The notes beneath the pieces are model-generated. The model had not been told where the DNA came from. It did no database searches and was given only the letters and a program-made list of their open reading frames with translations. Positions 84-29,727 of a stretch of 64,000 nt of DNA are shown here, one piece after another. Each line of letters starts with the position of its first letter. Position 1 is the stretch's first letter. This DNA comes from an uncultured bacterium (GTDB taxonomy: Bacteria; Hydrogenedentota; Hydrogenedentia; Hydrogenedentales; CAILVY01). The stretch is taken from the NCBI GenBank assembly GCA_937951485.1, contig CALEDJ010000028.1, positions 1 through 64,000 of the forward strand, given 5' to 3'. The position numbers were made by a program, and so were the translations under genes.

Positions 84-188
84 TCCCCCTCACCCCACCC
101 CTCTCCCAGAGGGAGAGGGCGTTGACCGCGCCACCTGCGGCATGCTGTTGCTCCCTCTCCCTCCGGGAGAGGGGTGGGGTGAGGGGGA
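84..188. repeat. Long imperfect palindrome, dispersed-repeat type
   Basis: Two long arms face each other: CCCCTCACCCCACCCCTCTCCC at the left (split by a few bases in its continuation) and its near reverse complement ending GGGGTGGGGTGAGGGGG at the right. An inner pair, GAGGGAGAGGGCG against CTCCCTCTCCCTC, adds to the stem. This form is typical of intergenic palindromic repeats scattered in many GC-rich genomes. No transposase is present. The rest of 1-558 contains no convincing coding region. Confidence 0.75.
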
Positions 189-558
189 AGGCCAATATGT
201 TCGAAGGCTGTTCTCAACGCCAAGAATAATCTGGACAGCACTGATGCGTGCTATACCGTCCGGAGTATCCAAACGCCCCGCTGACCGCGCATTTCATGGA
301 AGGGTCCTTTCTTTTATCATTCCCCCCTTCCGGCAGGCGCGCCATGCTTCACGGACCATGAATGGGGGATATTTCGCGTATTATACCGCCCCTTGGGCAA
401 GATTCAGTGCGCAGCAGACAGTCGGGCGCATTGGTTGGGCTTCGGACTTGCCTGGCGCCGGGCGTATGTGGATAATGGGCAATACGGCCCGCGCTTCGAT
501 GAAGGGCCGTGGGTGAAATGTGGGTGTAACATTGGCAAGGAAAAGGAAAGGAGAAATA

Positions 559-708
559 ATGAAGCATATTCAAGCCGTTACGAAGCAGGCGCCGCCGCGT
601 GCCACAGCGTCTTTCTTCTGCTTCTTCCTGGCGGTGCCCGCGGCCATTCTCGCCAAGGGCGACTCCGCAACCTATCGCGGCATCATGGAAGACAAAGGCT
701 GTCGGTAG
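559..708 (+). CDS. Small secreted or membrane peptide, 49 aa, unknown
   Basis: A 49-codon frame begins at an ATG placed a few bases after a strong purine-rich Shine-Dalgarno sequence (AAAGGAAAGGAG). The product has a basic N-terminus (MKHIQAVTKQ), a hydrophobic stretch (SFFCFFLAVPAAILA) that resembles a signal peptide with an A-x-A-like end, and a short charged tail ending in Cys-Arg. A good rho-independent terminator lies about 25 bp downstream, so this looks like an independent short transcript. I do not recognise the family. It could instead be the remnant of a longer secreted protein, as the mature part would be only about 20 residues. Confidence 0.45.
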   Translation: MKHIQAVTKQAPPRATASFFCFFLAVPAAILAKGDSATYRGIMEDKGCR

Positions 709-4137: not shown

Positions 4138-6537
4138 CTAATCACGACAGCGGCCTTCATCGATCGCCTGTCTGATCGCCATGGCCAGGGTGCGCGCGCG
4201 CACGGGCTTGTGGAGAAAACCTGCGGCACCCGCATCCATCAAACGCTGGGCGGCGACATCCATTTCGTAGCCGCTGCACAGGATCACCTTCATTTTGGGC
4301 CTGGCTTTCATAAGAAGCGGAAAAGCCTCCGCGCCGCTCATGACCGGCATGGCCATATCAAGCAGGGTCAGATGAATGGGTCCCTCATGGCGCTCCGCCA
4401 AAGCCACCGCTTCCCTGCCATTACAGGCCATCAGAACGGTGTATCCGAGACGTTCGAGAATCTCGCGCATGATATTCACGAGAAGGTCTTCATCTTCCAC
4501 CAGCAGAATGGTCTCATGGCCGAGTGGCAGTTCCTGCGATTTGATGCCGTCCGATAGGGCGCGATCCGAGGCGGCGGGCAGCAGGATTTCGAATACAGCC
4601 CCCTCACCTGGCCGGCTGGACACGCGGATGTGCCCGTGATGGCTTTGAACAATACCGTAAACGGCGGCAAGGCCCAGGCCGCGTCCCTGAAATCGGGTGG
4701 TGAAAAACGGCTCGAAGACCCGCGCCCGCACTTCATCGGTCATGCCATGACCGGTGTCCTGGACGCGCAGCCGCACATAACGCCCGGGTTGCAGATCAGC
4801 GTCAGGAGGCGGTTGTTCCAGCAGACAATTCTCGGTGATGATGCGAATCTCGCCGCCGTCCGCCATGGCCTCCACCGCGTTCAGGGAAAGATTCAGGATT
4901 ACCTGGCTTATCTGCGCCCGGTCGGCCATCATATGCCACAGATCGCGCGCAAAAACGCGCTCCATCCGCACATTCTTGGGGAACGTGTGTGCCTCCAGGC
5001 GCAACACTTCCTCAATAATCTGATTCAGATTGACCAGCGTCGGCGCGTACTTGCCGCCCTGGGCGAATGCAAGCAACTGATGCGCCAGGTTGCCCGCCTG
5101 CACCGCCGCCTTGGCAATGGCGCGTAGCATCCGTTTGGAATCGGCGTCCTGCGCGAATTTCATCTCCAGCAGTTCCGCATTCCCCAACACCGCCGCCATC
5201 AGGTTGTTGAAATCATGCGCGATACCCCCCGCCAGGGTCGCGGTGGCCTCCATGCGCGAGGACGCATGCACGGCCTTTTCCGCCTGCTTGATCCACGAAA
5301 TGTCGCGTATCGTGCCGATCCGAGAAACAGGCCGTCCCGCCTCATCCTTGATGATACTCGCTATCTCGCTGAACCAGCCGTATTCGCCGTTGCTCCGGCG
5401 CATGCGGTACTCGCATATCTGATGTTCTGGCGACGCCGCGCCCGCAGCCAATTGATCAAAATACGCCCGGCGTTTCGCCAGGTCTTCTTCCGGAAGCAGC
5501 GTCGCCAGTCCTTCCGCGCCCAGCGCCATGACCTCCTCCGGCGTCAGGCCGACCAGCGCGCTGGTGGACGGACTCAGGAACTCGTAATTGCCGGTGGACA
5601 CGTCCACCTTGTACACAATATCGCGGGAGTGCTCCAGGATTTCGCGGAACCGCCGCTCGCTGCTTTCCAACGCCGCCTGCGCATTCTGCTCCGCCGTCAC
5701 GTCGCGCCCGATGCCGACCAGCCCCACAACCGCCCCCGACGCGTCACGCAACGGCGCTTTGCTGCTCAATTCCCAGAAATGCCTGCCGTCCGCCGCCCTC
5801 ACGTGGTTCAGCACATTGCGTTTGCTCTCCCCGCGCCGCATCAATTCCAAATCCTCTTCGTGGTACTCCAGACCCGCCCCCGACGGAAAAAAATCCATCG
5901 CCGTCTTGCCCAGCACGTCGCCCAGCGATGACGCGCCCAGCGCGTGCAGTTTGGCGACATTCACATTGCGGTATCGCCCTTCCCTGTCCTTGACATACAC
6001 CGGATCAGGCAGGTTATCCATCAGGGCGCGCAGTTGCCGGCGTTCTTCATCCAGTTCTGCGGCGATGCGCTTCTGTTCCGTCAAGTCCGTGATCACCGCG
6101 AACACACCCCGAAAATGCCCAGATTCACCCCGGAAAGGGGTGGGGGCCATCAGCGTGTAGACAGACGCCCCGCTTTTCGCGCGCCAGACCAGGTCAAAGC
6201 GATCCGTGTTCCCGACCCGCCACTGGACCGATTTTTCTTCATAGTGCTGTTGCCATTCCGGAAGCAAAAAGACCGTAGGGCTGTGCCCCAGCATTTCTTC
6301 GGGGGTATAGCCCAAAGTTGTATAAAGAGCCTGATTCGCGTAAATGATCTGGCCGCGCTCATCCAGAATGAGCAGCCCTTCGGCCATGGACTCCACCAAC
6401 ATCTGATAAAACTGCGCATCCTTTCGGTGCATCGCCGCGCCCTTGCGGATGCTGTTGCGAAGGCGCGCAACTTCTGTGCGCAGAATCTCGTTTTCCGAGT
6501 GCAATGCAGCCATCTGTTGCCTGTCTGCAGAATCCAT
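4138..6537 (-). CDS. Hybrid sensor histidine kinase, three PAS domains plus receiver
   Basis: The 799-residue protein begins with a short coiled coil (1-40), then three PAS domains (about 42-155, 165-285, 295-415), with PAC segments such as FRGVFAVITDLTEQKR. The phospho-acceptor is H441 in GGIAHDFNNLMA. The ATPase domain shows the N box (NLSLNAVEAM, 549-558), DTGHGMTDEV (594 on) and GRGLGLAAV (618-626). A receiver follows with phospho-acceptor D727 in TLLDMAMPVMSG and K777. There are no transmembrane segments, so it senses a cytoplasmic signal, possibly redox or a small ligand. No separate response regulator or DNA-binding output is adjacent, so phosphate probably passes to an HPt protein encoded elsewhere. 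Confidence 0.95.
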   Translation of the reverse strand: MDSADRQQMAALHSENEILRTEVARLRNSIRKGAAMHRKDAQFYQMLVESMAEGLLILDERGQIIYANQALYTTLGYTPEEMLGHSPTVFLLPEWQQHYEEKSVQWRVGNTDRFDLVWRAKSGASVYTLMAPTPFRGESGHFRGVFAVITDLTEQKRIAAELDEERRQLRALMDNLPDPVYVKDREGRYRNVNVAKLHALGASSLGDVLGKTAMDFFPSGAGLEYHEEDLELMRRGESKRNVLNHVRAADGRHFWELSSKAPLRDASGAVVGLVGIGRDVTAEQNAQAALESSERRFREILEHSRDIVYKVDVSTGNYEFLSPSTSALVGLTPEEVMALGAEGLATLLPEEDLAKRRAYFDQLAAGAASPEHQICEYRMRRSNGEYGWFSEIASIIKDEAGRPVSRIGTIRDISWIKQAEKAVHASSRMEATATLAGGIAHDFNNLMAAVLGNAELLEMKFAQDADSKRMLRAIAKAAVQAGNLAHQLLAFAQGGKYAPTLVNLNQIIEEVLRLEAHTFPKNVRMERVFARDLWHMMADRAQISQVILNLSLNAVEAMADGGEIRIITENCLLEQPPPDADLQPGRYVRLRVQDTGHGMTDEVRARVFEPFFTTRFQGRGLGLAAVYGIVQSHHGHIRVSSRPGEGAVFEILLPAASDRALSDGIKSQELPLGHETILLVEDEDLLVNIMREILERLGYTVLMACNGREAVALAERHEGPIHLTLLDMAMPVMSGAEAFPLLMKARPKMKVILCSGYEMDVAAQRLMDAGAAGFLHKPVRARTLAMAIRQAIDEGRCRD

Positions 6538-7043: not shown

Positions 7044-7390
7044 GACCGAATCAGCCTCCATCATCGGCGCTTCCAAGGCCCGGGATTCTGATATCCATCC
7101 CACAGGTCACCCCCGTGGGTTCCAGGTTTCCGGCCTCAAAAGGCGACTTTGTTGCTTCGGGTTCCTTCCTGGAAAGCCCTGTTCCAGGATTGAAAATGCC
7201 TTGCCAAATCAGCGATTTATAAAAAATACAATTTGTCACATGATATTGCTGTCTTTTATAAGAACCCCGGCTTTCATCACCTGCATGCCTCTTGGGGATG
7301 CCAGGGAGAGCATAGTTGCAGTGTATGAGGCGCGTCTAGGCCCTGTGCGCCTGAAACTATCGTTTCATCACTTCGTTGTCAAAGCGTTTG
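7044..7390. other. Intergenic, AT-rich segment, no gene seen
   Basis: This 347-bp gap lies between the CinA homologue (ending at 7391) and the RlpA-like gene (starting at 7043), both on the minus strand. It must hold the RlpA promoter. A minus-strand TTGACA (7378-7383 area) with TAGTTT 17 bp later is one candidate. The stretch 7210-7262 is strikingly AT-rich for this genome. No small ORF with a ribosome site was recognised. Confidence 0.5.
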
Positions 7391-8569
7391 TCAAGACCCT
7401 ATTGGGGGCAACCCAAGCAGGATTCGCCGCACCTGCTCCAAAGAAACAATAGCGGTCCTGACTTGATTCCGCTCGACTGCGCCGAAGGAACCGATAACCC
7501 AAGTTTCGGCATGTTCGGGCGACACGAATGCCGCCTCGCTACAGCGTTCCTCTAATCTGGCCTGTACGGCCAATACGCAGTCAACCGACAACTCTAGCAA
7601 AAAACCGCGGGCCATGTCAATAGTTTTCTCAACTTTTTTTGCCCCTGCCGGGGGCAGGGGCTGAACGCGTCCCCCGCGAAACATAACGGAACCGATGGCC
7701 GTCAGGCGCTGGCAAATGGCCCCGCCGGTGATATCCTCCAATACGCCCAAGGTCCAGCCCCGTTCTCGCAACAATCGGTCCACCACCCCCTCCAGCGTCT
7801 CCGGTTCACAACCCATCACCGCCCCCCCCAAGCGTTCCCGCACCAGCGCGTCCACTGGGTCAATCAACGCCTCCGCCGCCTCCACGCTCTCCGCCCGCGC
7901 CATGATACGGATGCGCACCGCGTCCGGCGAGGCCAGCAAGCCCACTGTCGGGTTGCTGCCCTGGGTGATCAAATCCCCGATCATGCTGTCCACCCGCGAC
8001 TCGCCCATCCCGCAGACCTTCAATACCCGGGCATGCAGCACGCCGGAAATCCCGAAGCGCTTGCGGAGATAGGGAATCACGTGCTCCGTCATCATCGGCT
8101 TCAACTCGTGCGGCACCCCCGGCATGCAGATTACAGCCCCGCGATCGTCTTCGACCAGAATGCCCGGAGCGGTGCCATGCGGGTTGTCAATCGCCACCGC
8201 ACCTTGAGGAAGCATTGCCTGTTTCTTGTTGTTTTCGGTTATTTTGAACCGAATATGACGAAACCTGTCGCAGATCGCTGCAAACAACCGCTCATTATAT
8301 ATGAGTGGACGTTGCAGCAATTCCGCCACGCATTCGCGGGTGATGTCATCTTCGGTCGGGCCAAGCCCCCCGCTGCACAGGACGACATCCGCCCGGCGCA
8401 GGGCGGCGTCCAGCGCGGCGATGATCCGGGCGCGGTTGTCGCCCACCGTGGTTTTCTGGTAAAGATTGATGCCGTTTTCCGCGAGCGCATGCGCCATGAA
8501 CGTCGCATTCGTGTCCTGAATCTGGCCGATCAGCAGTTCCGTGCCGATCATCACTATTTCCGCCTGCAT
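7391..8569 (-). CDS. CinA-like protein with degenerate C-terminal deamidase domain
   Basis: From the ATG at 8569 (AAGGAGG about 11 bases upstream) the product is 392 residues. The N-terminal MoCF-biosynthesis/COG1058 domain is intact: IVMIGTELLIGQIQDTNA, CSGGLGPTEDDIT (about 65-77), and ICMPGVPHELKPMM. In CinA this domain has ADP-ribose pyrophosphatase-type activity. The C-terminal part aligns with the NMN deamidase domain (PncC), but the motif AESCTGG reads LEDITGG, so the catalytic serine position is Asp, and the later conserved substrate-loop motifs are not recognisable. NMN deamidation is therefore doubtful. Older names linking it to competence rest on operon context in other bacteria. 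It is divergent from menF. Confidence 0.85.
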   Translation of the reverse strand: MQAEIVMIGTELLIGQIQDTNATFMAHALAENGINLYQKTTVGDNRARIIAALDAALRRADVVLCSGGLGPTEDDITRECVAELLQRPLIYNERLFAAICDRFRHIRFKITENNKKQAMLPQGAVAIDNPHGTAPGILVEDDRGAVICMPGVPHELKPMMTEHVIPYLRKRFGISGVLHARVLKVCGMGESRVDSMIGDLITQGSNPTVGLLASPDAVRIRIMARAESVEAAEALIDPVDALVRERLGGAVMGCEPETLEGVVDRLLRERGWTLGVLEDITGGAICQRLTAIGSVMFRGGRVQPLPPAGAKKVEKTIDMARGFLLELSVDCVLAVQARLEERCSEAAFVSPEHAETWVIGSFGAVERNQVRTAIVSLEQVRRILLGLPPIGS

Positions 8570-8731
8570 GGTATGGACACCTCCTTGGCCTGGAAGCATA
8601 CGCGAAAAATGCGACAGGGACAACCGGGCGAACATCGTATTGACGGCGCGGTGAGCGCTTCACTAGAATCGGTTTTCTGATGCGGAAGCGGGCGATTGTT
8701 TCCCGGGCATGGGCGCGGGGCGGAACGTGAC

Positions 8732-10156
8732 GTGACAGAAAACCGTTGGAAAAACCTGAGTGTGCTGGCGCCGCCTGCGGCGACGCAGTTTCTTGCGGCG
8801 CGGATAACGGAAGCGCTGCTGTCGCAGGGGGAGTCCGGCATCCCGGAAGCGGCGGGCGGGGAGCCGGCGCGGTTTTTGCGCATTGAGACGGCCATTGACA
8901 CGATTTCGCCGCTGGACTGGCTGGCCGCGCAACCGGATTTCACCCAGTATTACTGGGCGGACCGGGAAGGGGCCTTTGCGATGGCGGGGGTGGGCGAGGC
9001 GGACGTGGTTGCGCCGTCGGACGAAGCGCCCCTGACGGCGCTGTTCGCGCGGCTGCGCGCCTACCTGAACGCGCGCGTGCCCAGCCTGCGCTATTACGGC
9101 GGCTTCCGGTTTCACAAGGGACCGGTGAAGGGGGACCGCTGGCGGACATTCAAGGAATACCGTTTTGTCGTGCCGAGATTTGAGTTGATTCAGCGGGACG
9201 GCGGCCTTTTTCTGGCGTGCAACCTGCGGGTGACGCATCCGCGGACCAATGCGATGCTGCATGAATCGCTCCTGCGCGACTTGGGGACGCTGCGTTTCCC
9301 GGAAACGCCGCCGGAGATTTCGCTGCCGCCCGTCGTGCAACGGATGGATTTTCCGGACCGGGAGGGATGGCGCAGGTTGCTTGCGCGGACGCTGGCCGCC
9401 ATTGACCTTGGCGAGATGGAGAAGGTCGTGGTGGCGCGTGAAAGCCTTTTCCGGGCGGCGGGACCGATTGACTCCGTGGCGCTGCTGCGCCGCCTCGCGG
9501 ACCAGGCCCCGTTGTGTTATCACTTCTGTTTTCATCCCGCAGCGGACCGGGCCTTCATCGGCGCGTCGCCGGAACGGCTGTACAAACGCATCAACTGCCA
9601 CCTGCGGACGGAGGCGCTCGCCGGGACTCGGCCGCGCGGGCATAGTGATGCGGCCGACCGCCGTCTGGGCGAGGCGCTGCTGCACAGCGACAAAGAACGC
9701 CGAGAACATCAAATCGTCGTCAAAGCGATAGATGCGCTGCTCCGCCCGTATTGCCGGCATTTTGACACAGAAAAGCAACCTGCGTTGTTGCGTTTGCGGC
9801 ATTGCCAGCACCTGCATACCCGCATCGAGGCGCTGCTGGCCCTCCCCGACGCCGACGCCCTGCTGATCGAACTGCTCCACCCGACCCCGGCGGTCGGCGG
9901 CCTGCCGCGCGATCGCGCGTTGCAGTGGATTGAAGTCGAGGAACCGTTTGACCGGGGCATCTATGCCGCGCCGGTCGGCTGGGTGGGCTATGACGCGGCG
10001 GAATTCAGCGTGGGAATTCGGTCCGGGCTGATTCAAGGGAACACGTTGGCGGTGTATACCGGCGCAGGCATTGTGTCGGGCGCCGATACGGAGGAAGAAT
10101 GGGCGGAAATCAACAGCAAACTGGCGGCGTTTCTGGCGGCAATGCGGGCGGATTGA
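8732..10156 (+). CDS. menF: Isochorismate synthase (menaquinone pathway)
   Basis: The product converts chorismate to isochorismate, the first committed step of menaquinone synthesis. From a GTG at 8732 it is 474 residues; the frame is open back to a TTG at 8696, and the start is uncertain because neither has a strong ribosome site. The C-terminal chorismate-binding domain is clear: EKVVVARESLF, FIGASPERL, EALAGTRPRG, and LHPTPAVGGLPRDRAL followed by FDRGIYAAPVGWVG. These are the Mg2+ and substrate-binding elements of MenF/EntC-type enzymes. The pairing with menD, which begins inside its last 58 bases, supports MenF rather than a siderophore enzyme. Confidence 0.9.
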   Translation: MTENRWKNLSVLAPPAATQFLAARITEALLSQGESGIPEAAGGEPARFLRIETAIDTISPLDWLAAQPDFTQYYWADREGAFAMAGVGEADVVAPSDEAPLTALFARLRAYLNARVPSLRYYGGFRFHKGPVKGDRWRTFKEYRFVVPRFELIQRDGGLFLACNLRVTHPRTNAMLHESLLRDLGTLRFPETPPEISLPPVVQRMDFPDREGWRRLLARTLAAIDLGEMEKVVVARESLFRAAGPIDSVALLRRLADQAPLCYHFCFHPAADRAFIGASPERLYKRINCHLRTEALAGTRPRGHSDAADRRLGEALLHSDKERREHQIVVKAIDALLRPYCRHFDTEKQPALLRLRHCQHLHTRIEALLALPDADALLIELLHPTPAVGGLPRDRALQWIEVEEPFDRGIYAAPVGWVGYDAAEFSVGIRSGLIQGNTLAVYTGAGIVSGADTEEEWAEINSKLAAFLAAMRAD

Positions 10157-21651: not shown

Positions 21652-21720
21652 TCATTCCCCGCGTAGTCTGCGCGGCTACCGGGTCTATGATTGCGGAAGG
21701 CGATGTGACGTCCGCCTGGG

Positions 21721-21810
21721 TTAGAAAAAAAGCCCGAGCAGATTCAGGATCAACTGAACAAGTTGAAGCACTTGAATGATGGATGCAATCACGGCTGCTA
21801 CGGCTTCCAT
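21721..21810 (-). CDS. 29-residue hydrophobic peptide, unknown
   Basis: A short minus-strand frame starts with ATG at 21810 and ends with TAA at 21721. The ATG lies about 5 bases after AAAGGAGAGG, one of the best Shine-Dalgarno sequences in the window. The peptide is almost wholly hydrophobic with a few Gln and Asn, beginning MEAVAAVIASIIQVLQ and ending LLGLFF, and would form one membrane helix. Size and make-up resemble type I toxin peptides, small membrane regulators or amphipathic secreted peptides, but I cannot assign it. It lies in a 515-bp gap beside a MITE-like inverted repeat. Confidence 0.55.
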   Translation of the reverse strand: MEAVAAVIASIIQVLQLVQLILNLLGLFF

Positions 21811-21894
21811 GGTCCTCTCCTTTGTTCTGTGGCAAACCTGCATTAATCAGCGGTAGTATAACTCAGGCGGACCAACGAAATCGAGTTGTACCAC

Positions 21895-21994
21895 GAGGCA
21901 TTTGCGAAATGGGCGTTTCAAACCTCAATTCCATCAAAAATCCCGGATATTTCCTGCGCTTAAACGCAAAAATCGTCCATTTCGCAAATGCCTC
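21895..21994. repeat. 100-bp MITE-like inverted repeat
   Basis: GAGGCATTTGCGAAATGG (21895-21912) and CCATTTCGCAAATGCCTC (21977-21994) form a perfect 18-bp inverted repeat around a 64-bp AT-richer core. This is the form of a small non-autonomous transposable element or an IS end pair. No transposase is encoded. Confidence 0.65.
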
Positions 21995-22053
21995 TACCAC
22001 AACATCCCACCCACATCTGTTTTGGTGAGCCAATAAACTGTCGGCTTCAATGC

Positions 22054-28149: not shown

Positions 28150-28938
28150 ATGCGCGAAATTGATTTCATCGAGTTGTTCTTGAGAGAAAACGCCGCGTAC
28201 GTTCGCAACAAATTCAATGACAAGTCCGGTCTGACCGTAAGCACAAAGGCGCACGCCGGCGATCTGTTGACCGAGGTGGACCTGACCATTCAGAAGCGCT
28301 TTGTGGACAAGGTGACAGCGACATTTCCCGACGATATTGTGGTGGGGGAGGAGGGAGAATTCGCCCGCTATCCCCGCCCCGGCGAATCCCGCGTATGGGT
28401 TATCGATCCAATTGACGGCACCTACAACTTCGTCCGCGGACTATACCCCGTTTTTGGCATCTCCATCGCCTTCACTGTAAACGGTGAATGCATTGCCGGC
28501 GGCGTGCTCCTGCCCATGAGCGACGACTTGTTTCTCGCTGAGCGCGGTTCCGGCAGTTACCATAATGGACACCGTCTGCGCGTCTCTGACGTGAGACAGG
28601 CGAACGAAGCGTGCATTCAGGTGGATTTCAGCGACCTGGAAGACCGCAAAGCCCTTATCAAAAGGGCATTGGACATGCTGCGGACGGTGGGGCAATTGCG
28701 CAGCATCGGTTCGGCGGTCGCCTCCATCTGCCAGGTGGCGATGGGGGAGGCCGAAGGATACCTGCACATGAGCCTCTGCCCGTGGGATTACGCCGCATCG
28801 CAACTAATCGTCGAAGAAGCCGGGGGCATGGCCAGCCGCCTCGACGGAAGCCCCCTGAGGCTTTTTGACAACCGCTCCGGCGTGCTTATCACCAACGGCG
28901 CCATCCACCGCGAAATGCTCGGCCTGATCACGCCGTAA
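28150..28938 (+). CDS. Inositol monophosphatase family phosphatase
   Basis: The 262-residue product has the full metal-dependent phosphatase signature: VGEEGEF (E67/E68), WVIDPIDGTYNFVRG (D86, D89) and WDYAASQLIVEEAGG. Family members hydrolyse inositol phosphates, fructose-1,6-bisphosphate, histidinol phosphate or PAP with Mg2+, and the substrate is not decided by these motifs. It lies downstream of the ABC importer and converges on the cyclo-ligase gene across the 9-bp repeat array. Confidence 0.92.
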   Translation: MREIDFIELFLRENAAYVRNKFNDKSGLTVSTKAHAGDLLTEVDLTIQKRFVDKVTATFPDDIVVGEEGEFARYPRPGESRVWVIDPIDGTYNFVRGLYPVFGISIAFTVNGECIAGGVLLPMSDDLFLAERGSGSYHNGHRLRVSDVRQANEACIQVDFSDLEDRKALIKRALDMLRTVGQLRSIGSAVASICQVAMGEAEGYLHMSLCPWDYAASQLIVEEAGGMASRLDGSPLRLFDNRSGVLITNGAIHREMLGLITP

Positions 28939-28961
28939 TCCCTCCGATCGCCAACCTATCC

Positions 28962-29145
28962 GGTCCATCCGACCGGCCCAGCCCGTCCAACATGTCCGAC
29001 TGGTCTGACCCGTCCGACTGGTCCGACATGTCCGACCCGTCCGACCCGTCAGACCGGCCCAGCCCGTCCAACATGTCCGACTGGTCCGACTGGTCCGACA
29101 TGTCCGACTGGTCCGACCCGTCCGACCCGTCCGACCCGTCCGACT
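28962..29145. repeat. 9-bp minisatellite, consensus GTCCGAC(T/C)(G/C)
   Basis: About twenty degenerate copies of a 9-mer such as GTCCGACTG or GTCCGACCC fill the gap between two convergent genes. A higher-order unit repeats at 81 bp (nine 9-mers): GACCGGCCCAGCCCGTCC at 28971 recurs at 29052. A three-copy version lies at 865-898. Open frames through it would give Ser-Asp-rich peptides but have no start signals; I regard it as noncoding. Confidence 0.9.
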
Positions 29146-29148
29146 GCC

Positions 29149-29727
29149 TTACCTGCCCGGCGCCCCGGCGCACCGAATAACCCGCTCTTCCGTGATAACC
29201 CACTGCACCGGCCGATCATGGGGCTGCGACTGGAAATCATCGGTGATCTGAAATTCGTAGGCCAACCCCGCCGTAGTCCCCGAAAACCCGGCCAGAAATC
29301 GGTCATAATACCCCGCGCCGTAGCCTATCCGGTATCCATCCAAGCGAAACGCAATGCCGGGCACGATGCACAACGCCGCGCTCGATATCGTCCTGACCAG
29401 CGGCAGCGATTCCGGGGGTTCCAGAACATCAAAAGGGCCCCGTTCAAGCGTTTCCAGGACATCCAGTCGCCGCCAATCCATCAGTCGCGACGGCAGCGCC
29501 TTGGGAACCAATACCTCCCGCCCGGCAGCAAGCAGTTCCCGGATAAGGCCGCAGGTATCCACTTCATGGTCTTTGGAAGCCACATAGGTCAGTATCTGCG
29601 GAGCATCCCGGAAGACATCCAGCGTTTTCAGGCGGTGGAGGATGGCGGCGCTTCGTTTCGCCGCTTCCTCGGAGGACAATTCGCGGCGTTTCTCGAGGAG
29701 TTGTCGGCGCAGTTCCTGTTTCTCCAT
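29149..29727 (-). CDS. 5-formyltetrahydrofolate cyclo-ligase
   Basis: The 192-residue enzyme uses ATP to convert 5-formyl-THF to 5,10-methenyl-THF, returning the storage form to the one-carbon pool. Landmarks are [19 protein letters not shown] (ATP-binding N-terminus), VLVPKALP, and [15 protein letters not shown], the family signature. The start at 29727 follows GAGGAG at good distance; the frame remains open upstream but no second ribosome site is seen. The 3' end abuts the minisatellite. In many bacteria this gene lies next to 6S RNA, but I could not identify 6S here. Confidence 0.93.

What the first reader, a model, noticed from the sequence alone, without database searches (positions are those of the whole stretch)
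21721..21810. 29-residue hydrophobic peptide gene with a very strong ribosome site
Between the methyltransferase and propeller genes is a minus-strand ATG frame of 29 codons, shortly after AAAGGAGAGG. The peptide is nearly all hydrophobic with Gln/Asn, giving one membrane helix. A frame this short with such a good site is unlikely to be a protein remnant. It could be a type I toxin, a membrane regulator or a small secreted peptide; its neighbourhood with a MITE-like element fits a mobile or addictive locus.
Basis: partly seen in the sequence, partly recalled or inferred. Interest (0 to 1): 0.6.

Follow-up and report, generated by a model that had tools for sequence, protein, structure and literature searches.

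The report
Tiny hydrophobic helix gene, phylum-specific family
The 29-residue reading frame is very probably a real gene, and it looks like a short outlying member of a previously unnamed family of tiny helical peptides found throughout the bacterial phylum Hydrogenedentota, whose standard members carry a shared leader and often sit beside genes for modifying, cutting and exporting peptides, so it is not a typical toxin or mobile gene.

Summary
A minus-strand ATG frame (21810-21721) encodes MEAVAAVIASIIQVLQLVQLILNLLGLFF behind AAAGGAGAGG. None of 3000 shuffles of the intergenic DNA gives such a frame. The host is a Candidatus Hydrogenedentota bacterium. The frame is single-copy and has no close homologue.

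A phylum search found leaderless 37-aa genes that beat composition-shuffled controls. Profiles built from those opened a phylum-wide small-protein family under strong purifying selection. Typical members carry the leader MKHxRxISRxPAxAQ, then a helix such as ILDVILQILNVIEAIxRLFG. Related leader peptides form tandem operons with two GNAT acetyltransferases, a CPBP/Rce1-like protease and an ABC exporter. The most conserved operon peptide occurs in 53 of 68 Hydrogenedentota genomes and 0 of 318 others. No Pfam or NCBIfam model covers the family.

The window peptide is best read as a leaderless, divergent, extra member (about 0.75). Its role is inferred: a membrane-associated or exported helix. 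A type I toxin is unlikely: no charged C-terminus, no phage or plasmid homologue, single copy, no antisense promoter match. The MITE beside it is real (about 40 copies) but separate. A second leader-type gene lies at 559-708.

The parts
21721..21810 (-). 29-codon gene MEAVAAVIASIIQVLQLVQLILNLLGLFF with stop
   Evidence: 0 of 3000 shuffles give such a frame; similar to leaderless family members beyond composition
21814..21823 (-). Shine-Dalgarno site AAAGGAGAGG
21710..21723 (.). inverted-repeat arm overlapping the stop codon (pairs with 21859-21872, 13 of 14); could close the mRNA into a long-range stem; function unknown
   Evidence: 0 of 400 shuffles; RNA fold z -1.5; not seen in relatives
21859..21872 (.). 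partner arm, 49-62 nt upstream of the ATG
21895..21994 (.). MITE copy with 24-nt inverted ends and a TACCAC target duplication at 21889-21894 and 21995-22000; neighbour, not part of the gene
559..708 (+). second small gene of the leader family: MKHIQAVTKQAPPRATASFFCFFLAVPAAILAKGDSATYRGIMEDKGCR
   Evidence: leader motif and Shine-Dalgarno; full-length relative in G004, MKHVHAVTKQIPVKASGLCGFKAIFASITSQTAGEFNVKMNRKGC

Best explanation
A real small gene encoding a single hydrophobic helix. It is a leaderless, divergent extra member of a Hydrogenedentota-specific family of tiny helical peptides. Typical members have an N-terminal leader MK[HR]xRx[IV][ST]RxPAxAQ followed by a helix with a narrow stripe of polar residues. 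Relatives with the same leader are encoded in tandem with two GNAT acyltransferases, a CPBP/Rce1-like membrane protease and an ABC-2 exporter. Proposed mechanism: the leader marks canonical peptides for cutting at PAxA/Q, N-terminal acylation and export, giving amphipathic helices that act at membranes or outside the cell. The window peptide corresponds to the helix alone, made from its own strong ribosome site, and would act at the membrane without leader processing. Shown: the gene's anatomy, sequence similarity, family conservation and the operon. Inferred: processing, acylation, export and any membrane role.
For: From 68 phylum genomes the peptide search returned only three weak hits besides itself. 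All three were complete 37-codon genes of one genus, with a purine-rich ribosome site that is clearest in G006. Against one of them (G008) the pairwise score is reached by 0 of 2000 composition shuffles; the same holds for the 31-aa leaderless gene of G030. A profile built without the window peptide scores it 9.2 bits; the best of 193 comparably hydrophobic stretches of ordinary proteins scores 4.4, and 69 of 20000 shuffles reach it. It ranks third in its own genome after two clear members. Family members differ mostly at synonymous sites: G029/G030 show 17 synonymous and 0 non-synonymous changes in 31 codons. A leader-bearing member sits beside a trxB-like gene in this genome (C58). The C34 operon holds five leader peptides, two GNATs, a CPBP protease, an ABC ATPase and an ABC-2 permease. 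Leaderless forms sit at the same trxB locus as leader-bearing ones, so losing the leader is a normal variation in this family.
Against: Membership of the window peptide rests on weak statistics: E 0.12-0.23 with profiles that exclude it. If shuffles keep its pattern of hydrophobic and polar positions, 2-6% reach its score. It has no leader, no shared synteny and no close orthologue, so selection on this gene itself could not be measured. Nothing shows that the peptide is made, processed or exported.
Confidence: 0.6

Rival explanations
1. An independent young orphan gene: a small single-pass membrane protein, perhaps a regulator of a membrane complex, that resembles the family only because hydrophobic helices resemble each other.
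For: No leader, no synteny with family members, found in one genome only; profile E-values above 0.1.
Against: Similarity beyond composition in pairwise and profile tests; leaderless genes of similar length with their own Shine-Dalgarno sites exist in the family.
Confidence: 0.2
2. A type I toxin whose mRNA is held shut by pairing of its 5' and 3' ends and silenced by an antisense RNA.
For: Short hydrophobic frame, strong ribosome site, 14-nt complementary arms bracketing the gene.
Against: No charged C-terminus, a usual type I toxin feature (PMC6563280); single copy; no plasmid or phage relatives; no antisense promoter match; arms not conserved in relatives; fold z only -1.5.
Confidence: 0.1
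3. A non-functional frame, or part of a dead mobile cassette delimited by the 14-nt inverted repeat.
For: Inverted repeat flanks the gene; a MITE is inserted 85 bp upstream.
Against: No second copy of the 163-bp unit in the genome; no obvious target duplication; frame and site are far beyond chance.
Confidence: 0.1

Closest known systems
RiPP clusters with GNAT acyltransferases (selidamides, e.g. phaeornamide; PMC9505594)
   Same: Short ribosomal precursors with a leader, a GNAT enzyme and dedicated transport genes in one cluster.
   Different: No known leader model (such as NHLP) matches these peptides; no lanthionine synthetase, arginase or hydroxylase seen in the conserved neighbourhood; two GNATs plus a CPBP protease; tandem helical peptides; restricted to one phylum. 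The window peptide itself lacks the leader and lies elsewhere.
Phenol-soluble modulins and their Pmt ABC exporter (from general knowledge)
   Same: Tandem tiny helical peptides and an ABC exporter; the window peptide is likewise a bare helix without a leader.
   Different: No sequence relationship shown; canonical members here have a leader and modifying enzymes; PSM peptides are lysine-rich, the window peptide has no lysine.
CPBP (Rce1/MroQ/MrtJ-type) intramembrane proteases that process small exported peptides or sorting signals
   Same: The operon protein passes Pfam Rce1-like (E 1e-12) and weakly matches MrtJ and MroQ models.
   Different: Below the NCBIfam cut-offs; substrate unknown.
Type I toxins (Fst, TisB, Hok class)
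   Same: Short, hydrophobic, one helix.
   Different: No charged C-terminus, no antisense RNA evidence, single copy, no mobile distribution.

Membership tests
Hydrogenedentota leader/helix small-peptide family (defined here) | helix core [IV]LDVILQ[IV]LxxIExIxRLfG, similarity beyond composition | tested here: met
   0 of 2000 shuffles against G008 and G030; 0 of 193 protein stretches; but E 0.12-0.23
Hydrogenedentota leader/helix small-peptide family (defined here) | N-terminal leader ending PAxAQ | tested here: not met
   absent in the window peptide; also absent in other members, some at loci orthologous to leader-bearing ones, so it is usual but not universal in the family
Hydrogenedentota leader/helix small-peptide family (defined here) | short complete frame behind a strong Shine-Dalgarno site | tested here: met
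Type I toxin-antitoxin | charged residues at the C-terminus of a hydrophobic peptide | tested here: not met
   C-terminus is NLLGLFF; feature described in PMC6563280
Type I toxin-antitoxin | antisense RNA antitoxin | tested here: inconclusive
   no sigma-70-like site and no Rfam match; other promoter types not covered; no RNA data
Type I toxin-antitoxin | toxicity on overexpression | not testable with these tools
   needs a bench test
RiPP precursor | conserved leader on several precursors with variable cores beside tailoring and export genes | tested here: met
   met by the C34 operon peptides, not by the window peptide itself
RiPP precursor | modified mature product | not testable with these tools
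   needs mass spectrometry
NCBIfam smalltalk (NF033879) and other named small-protein families | match to a model above its curated score | tested here: not met
   smalltalk: one member of 17 at E 9e-4, window peptide none; Pfam: only two chance-level matches, window peptide none

The most novel reading that the evidence does not exclude
A phylum-defining peptide system: Hydrogenedentota make sets of tiny leader-bearing helical peptides that are processed by a CPBP membrane protease, acylated by paired GNATs and exported by a dedicated ABC transporter. Orphan and leaderless members such as the window gene form a second layer outside the operon.
Probability: 0.45. Interest if true: 0.75.

Novelty: new variant of a known kind. 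Interest (0 to 1): 0.56.

Why it matters
Genes this short are routinely missed by annotation. If right, one overlooked 29-codon frame leads to a conserved, phylum-specific peptide family and export operon in bacteria known mostly from metagenome-assembled genomes. The family has no Pfam or NCBIfam model. Because its best-conserved peptide is in 53 of 68 genomes, it would be a marker for the phylum and a concrete target for peptide chemistry.

Tried and rejected
Mobile unit bounded by the 14-nt inverted repeat: no second copy in the genome. Type I toxin: see rivals. Known RNA family: none in Rfam. Plasmid or phage origin: no tblastn match up to E 10, no DNA match in phages, no viral relative of the operon peptide. 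Conserved 5'-3' mRNA pairing: only in the window gene. Known protein family: none in Pfam, NCBIfam or PHROGs. Peptide beside the same methyltransferase in the related MAG PWNM01000258: not seen. Published descriptions of such a family or operon: none found in the papers held. Structure prediction was not run, since a 29-residue helix would add little.

Full report
Observation. The frame at 21810-21721 on the minus strand reads MEAVAAVIASIIQVLQLVQLILNLLGLFF and is preceded by AAAGGAGAGG. In dinucleotide shuffles of the 464-base intergenic region, none of 3000 gives an ATG frame of 24-60 codons that is at least 70% hydrophobic and has a Shine-Dalgarno match of six bases or more. The real 64 kb window holds exactly one, and 20 shuffled windows hold none. 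The frame and its site are therefore not accidental by composition. Its neighbours are an O-methyltransferase and a Reg_prop propeller protein.

Host and copy number. A relative of the methyltransferase comes from a Candidatus Hydrogenedentota MAG. The genome has one copy of the peptide, its genus has one genome, and two same-family genomes have no BLAST match. No plasmid or phage record matches.

Relatives. In 68 phylum genomes the peptide search returned, besides itself, only three hits, at E 0.8-0.9. All three are complete 37-codon genes of one genus: MTMIFEIVSVILQLLQVIEYIVRLFGLIWPGNNSEEL and, twice, MAYAFDIVSIVLQVLQIIEYIVRIVGLIWPGESEETT. A profile from these found further short genes with ribosome sites across the phylum. 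Typical ones are MAKKTIKRIPAPAQDILTVLDVILQMINVIEAIHRLITNVFGV and MDFLLILDAILQIINIIEALFRLVGLFGSGA. With a later profile built without the window peptide, 41 of 68 genomes have a match at E 0.001 or better; many of these sequences were in the profile. The A2 profile gave no convincing match in the 318 genomes sampled outside the phylum: the best was E 0.008, inside a longer frame. Sequence pairs from related genomes differ mainly at synonymous sites, for example 17 to 0 over 31 codons for G029 and G030. These are protein-coding genes under purifying selection.

Is the window peptide a member? Profiles without it give E 0.12 within the window and 0.23 within the genome, where it ranks third after two clear members at C34 and C58. 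Composition-controlled tests are stronger. Pairwise scores against G008 and G030 are reached by none of 2000 shuffles. The profile score of 9.2 is reached by 69 of 20000 full shuffles and by none of 193 hydrophobic stretches of ordinary proteins, the best of which scores 4.4. If the hydrophobic/polar pattern is kept, 2-6% of shuffles reach the score. I put membership at about 0.75. It is an extra copy: the trxB-adjacent member of this genome is at C58. It is leaderless, as are genes in G006-G009, G020, G027, G029 and G030. In G027, G029 and G030 the leaderless gene lies at the trxB locus that carries longer, leader-bearing or partly leader-bearing genes in G031, G034, G036 and G039.

The wider system. 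Many relatives share the N-terminus MK[HR]xRx[IV][ST]RxPAxAQ and occur as tandem sets of two to five small genes. In at least 12 genomes such genes lie upstream of a GNAT protein; the usual order is then a second GNAT, a CPBP/Rce1-like protease, an ABC ATPase and an ABC-2 permease. In the window's own genome this operon is at C34: five leader peptides at L141 5072, 5351, 5571, 5733 and 5990, GNATs at 6192 and 6735, protease at 7361, ABC ATPase within the frame 7324-9111, and permease at 9113. The last peptide before the GNAT, MKHIKKISTVRADAFTDFMNAIWRAWQDFRYAKKNEIYG, has relatives at E 0.001 or better in 53 of 68 phylum genomes and in none of 318 others. None of the peptides matches Pfam or NCBIfam above a curated score. 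No paper in the library describes them.

Mechanism. The arrangement (shared leader, variable helices, membrane protease, acyltransferases, exporter) is that of an exported, probably modified peptide system. Cutting at PAxA/Q, acylation and export are inference. For the window gene the simplest reading is a bare helix with a polar stripe (S10, Q13, Q16, Q19, N23) that associates with the membrane, or is exported, without leader processing. Its separate locus and missing leader mean a different, even independent, membrane role cannot be excluded.

Toxin and mobility. The peptide's only charged residue is E2 and its C-terminus is LLGLFF, whereas type I toxins usually have charged C-termini (PMC6563280). 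No sigma-70-like promoter was found on either strand. The 14-nt inverted repeat at 21710-21723 and 21859-21872 could close the mRNA into a long-range stem and is beyond chance in shuffles, though it was noticed after the fact. The folding energy is only 1.5 standard deviations below shuffles, and none of 13 relatives tested shows such a repeat. The element at 21895-21994 is a true MITE with about 40 other copies and a TACCAC duplication, but it carries no part of the gene, and the genome holds no second copy of the region that contains the gene.

Limits. Profiles were grown iteratively, so E-values of their own members are inflated. Statements about the window gene itself rest on one genome.

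Noticed in passing
window 559-708 (+): A second leader-type small gene, MKHIQAVTKQAPPRATASFFCFFLAVPAAILAKGDSATYRGIMEDKGCR, behind AAAGGAAAGGAG; full-length relative in G004 (E 0.004) with the same leader and a C-terminal KGC.
   Followed up: partly
window 21895-21994: 100-bp MITE with 24-nt inverted ends and a TACCAC duplication; about 40 other copies at 78-98% identity in the genome.
   Followed up: partly
L141 5072-9946 (genome contig C34): Operon of five leader peptides, two GNATs, a CPBP protease, an ABC ATPase and an ABC-2 permease; conserved across the phylum.
   Followed up: partly
L142 5306-5461 (-) (genome contig C58): Leader-bearing peptide beside a thioredoxin-reductase-like gene; the same neighbour is seen in genomes of several families.
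   Followed up: partly
window 21710-21723 and 21859-21872: 14-nt inverted repeat bracketing the gene, overlapping the stop codon; unexplained.
   Followed up: partly
window 87-217: Inverted pair of near-identical C- and G-rich stretches (ccctcaccccacccctctcccagagggagaggg / ctccctctccctccgggagaggggtggggtgaggggg), perhaps another repeat element.
   Followed up: no
window 28928-29203 (-): Frame with repeated [14 protein letters not shown] units from a short tandem repeat.
   Followed up: no
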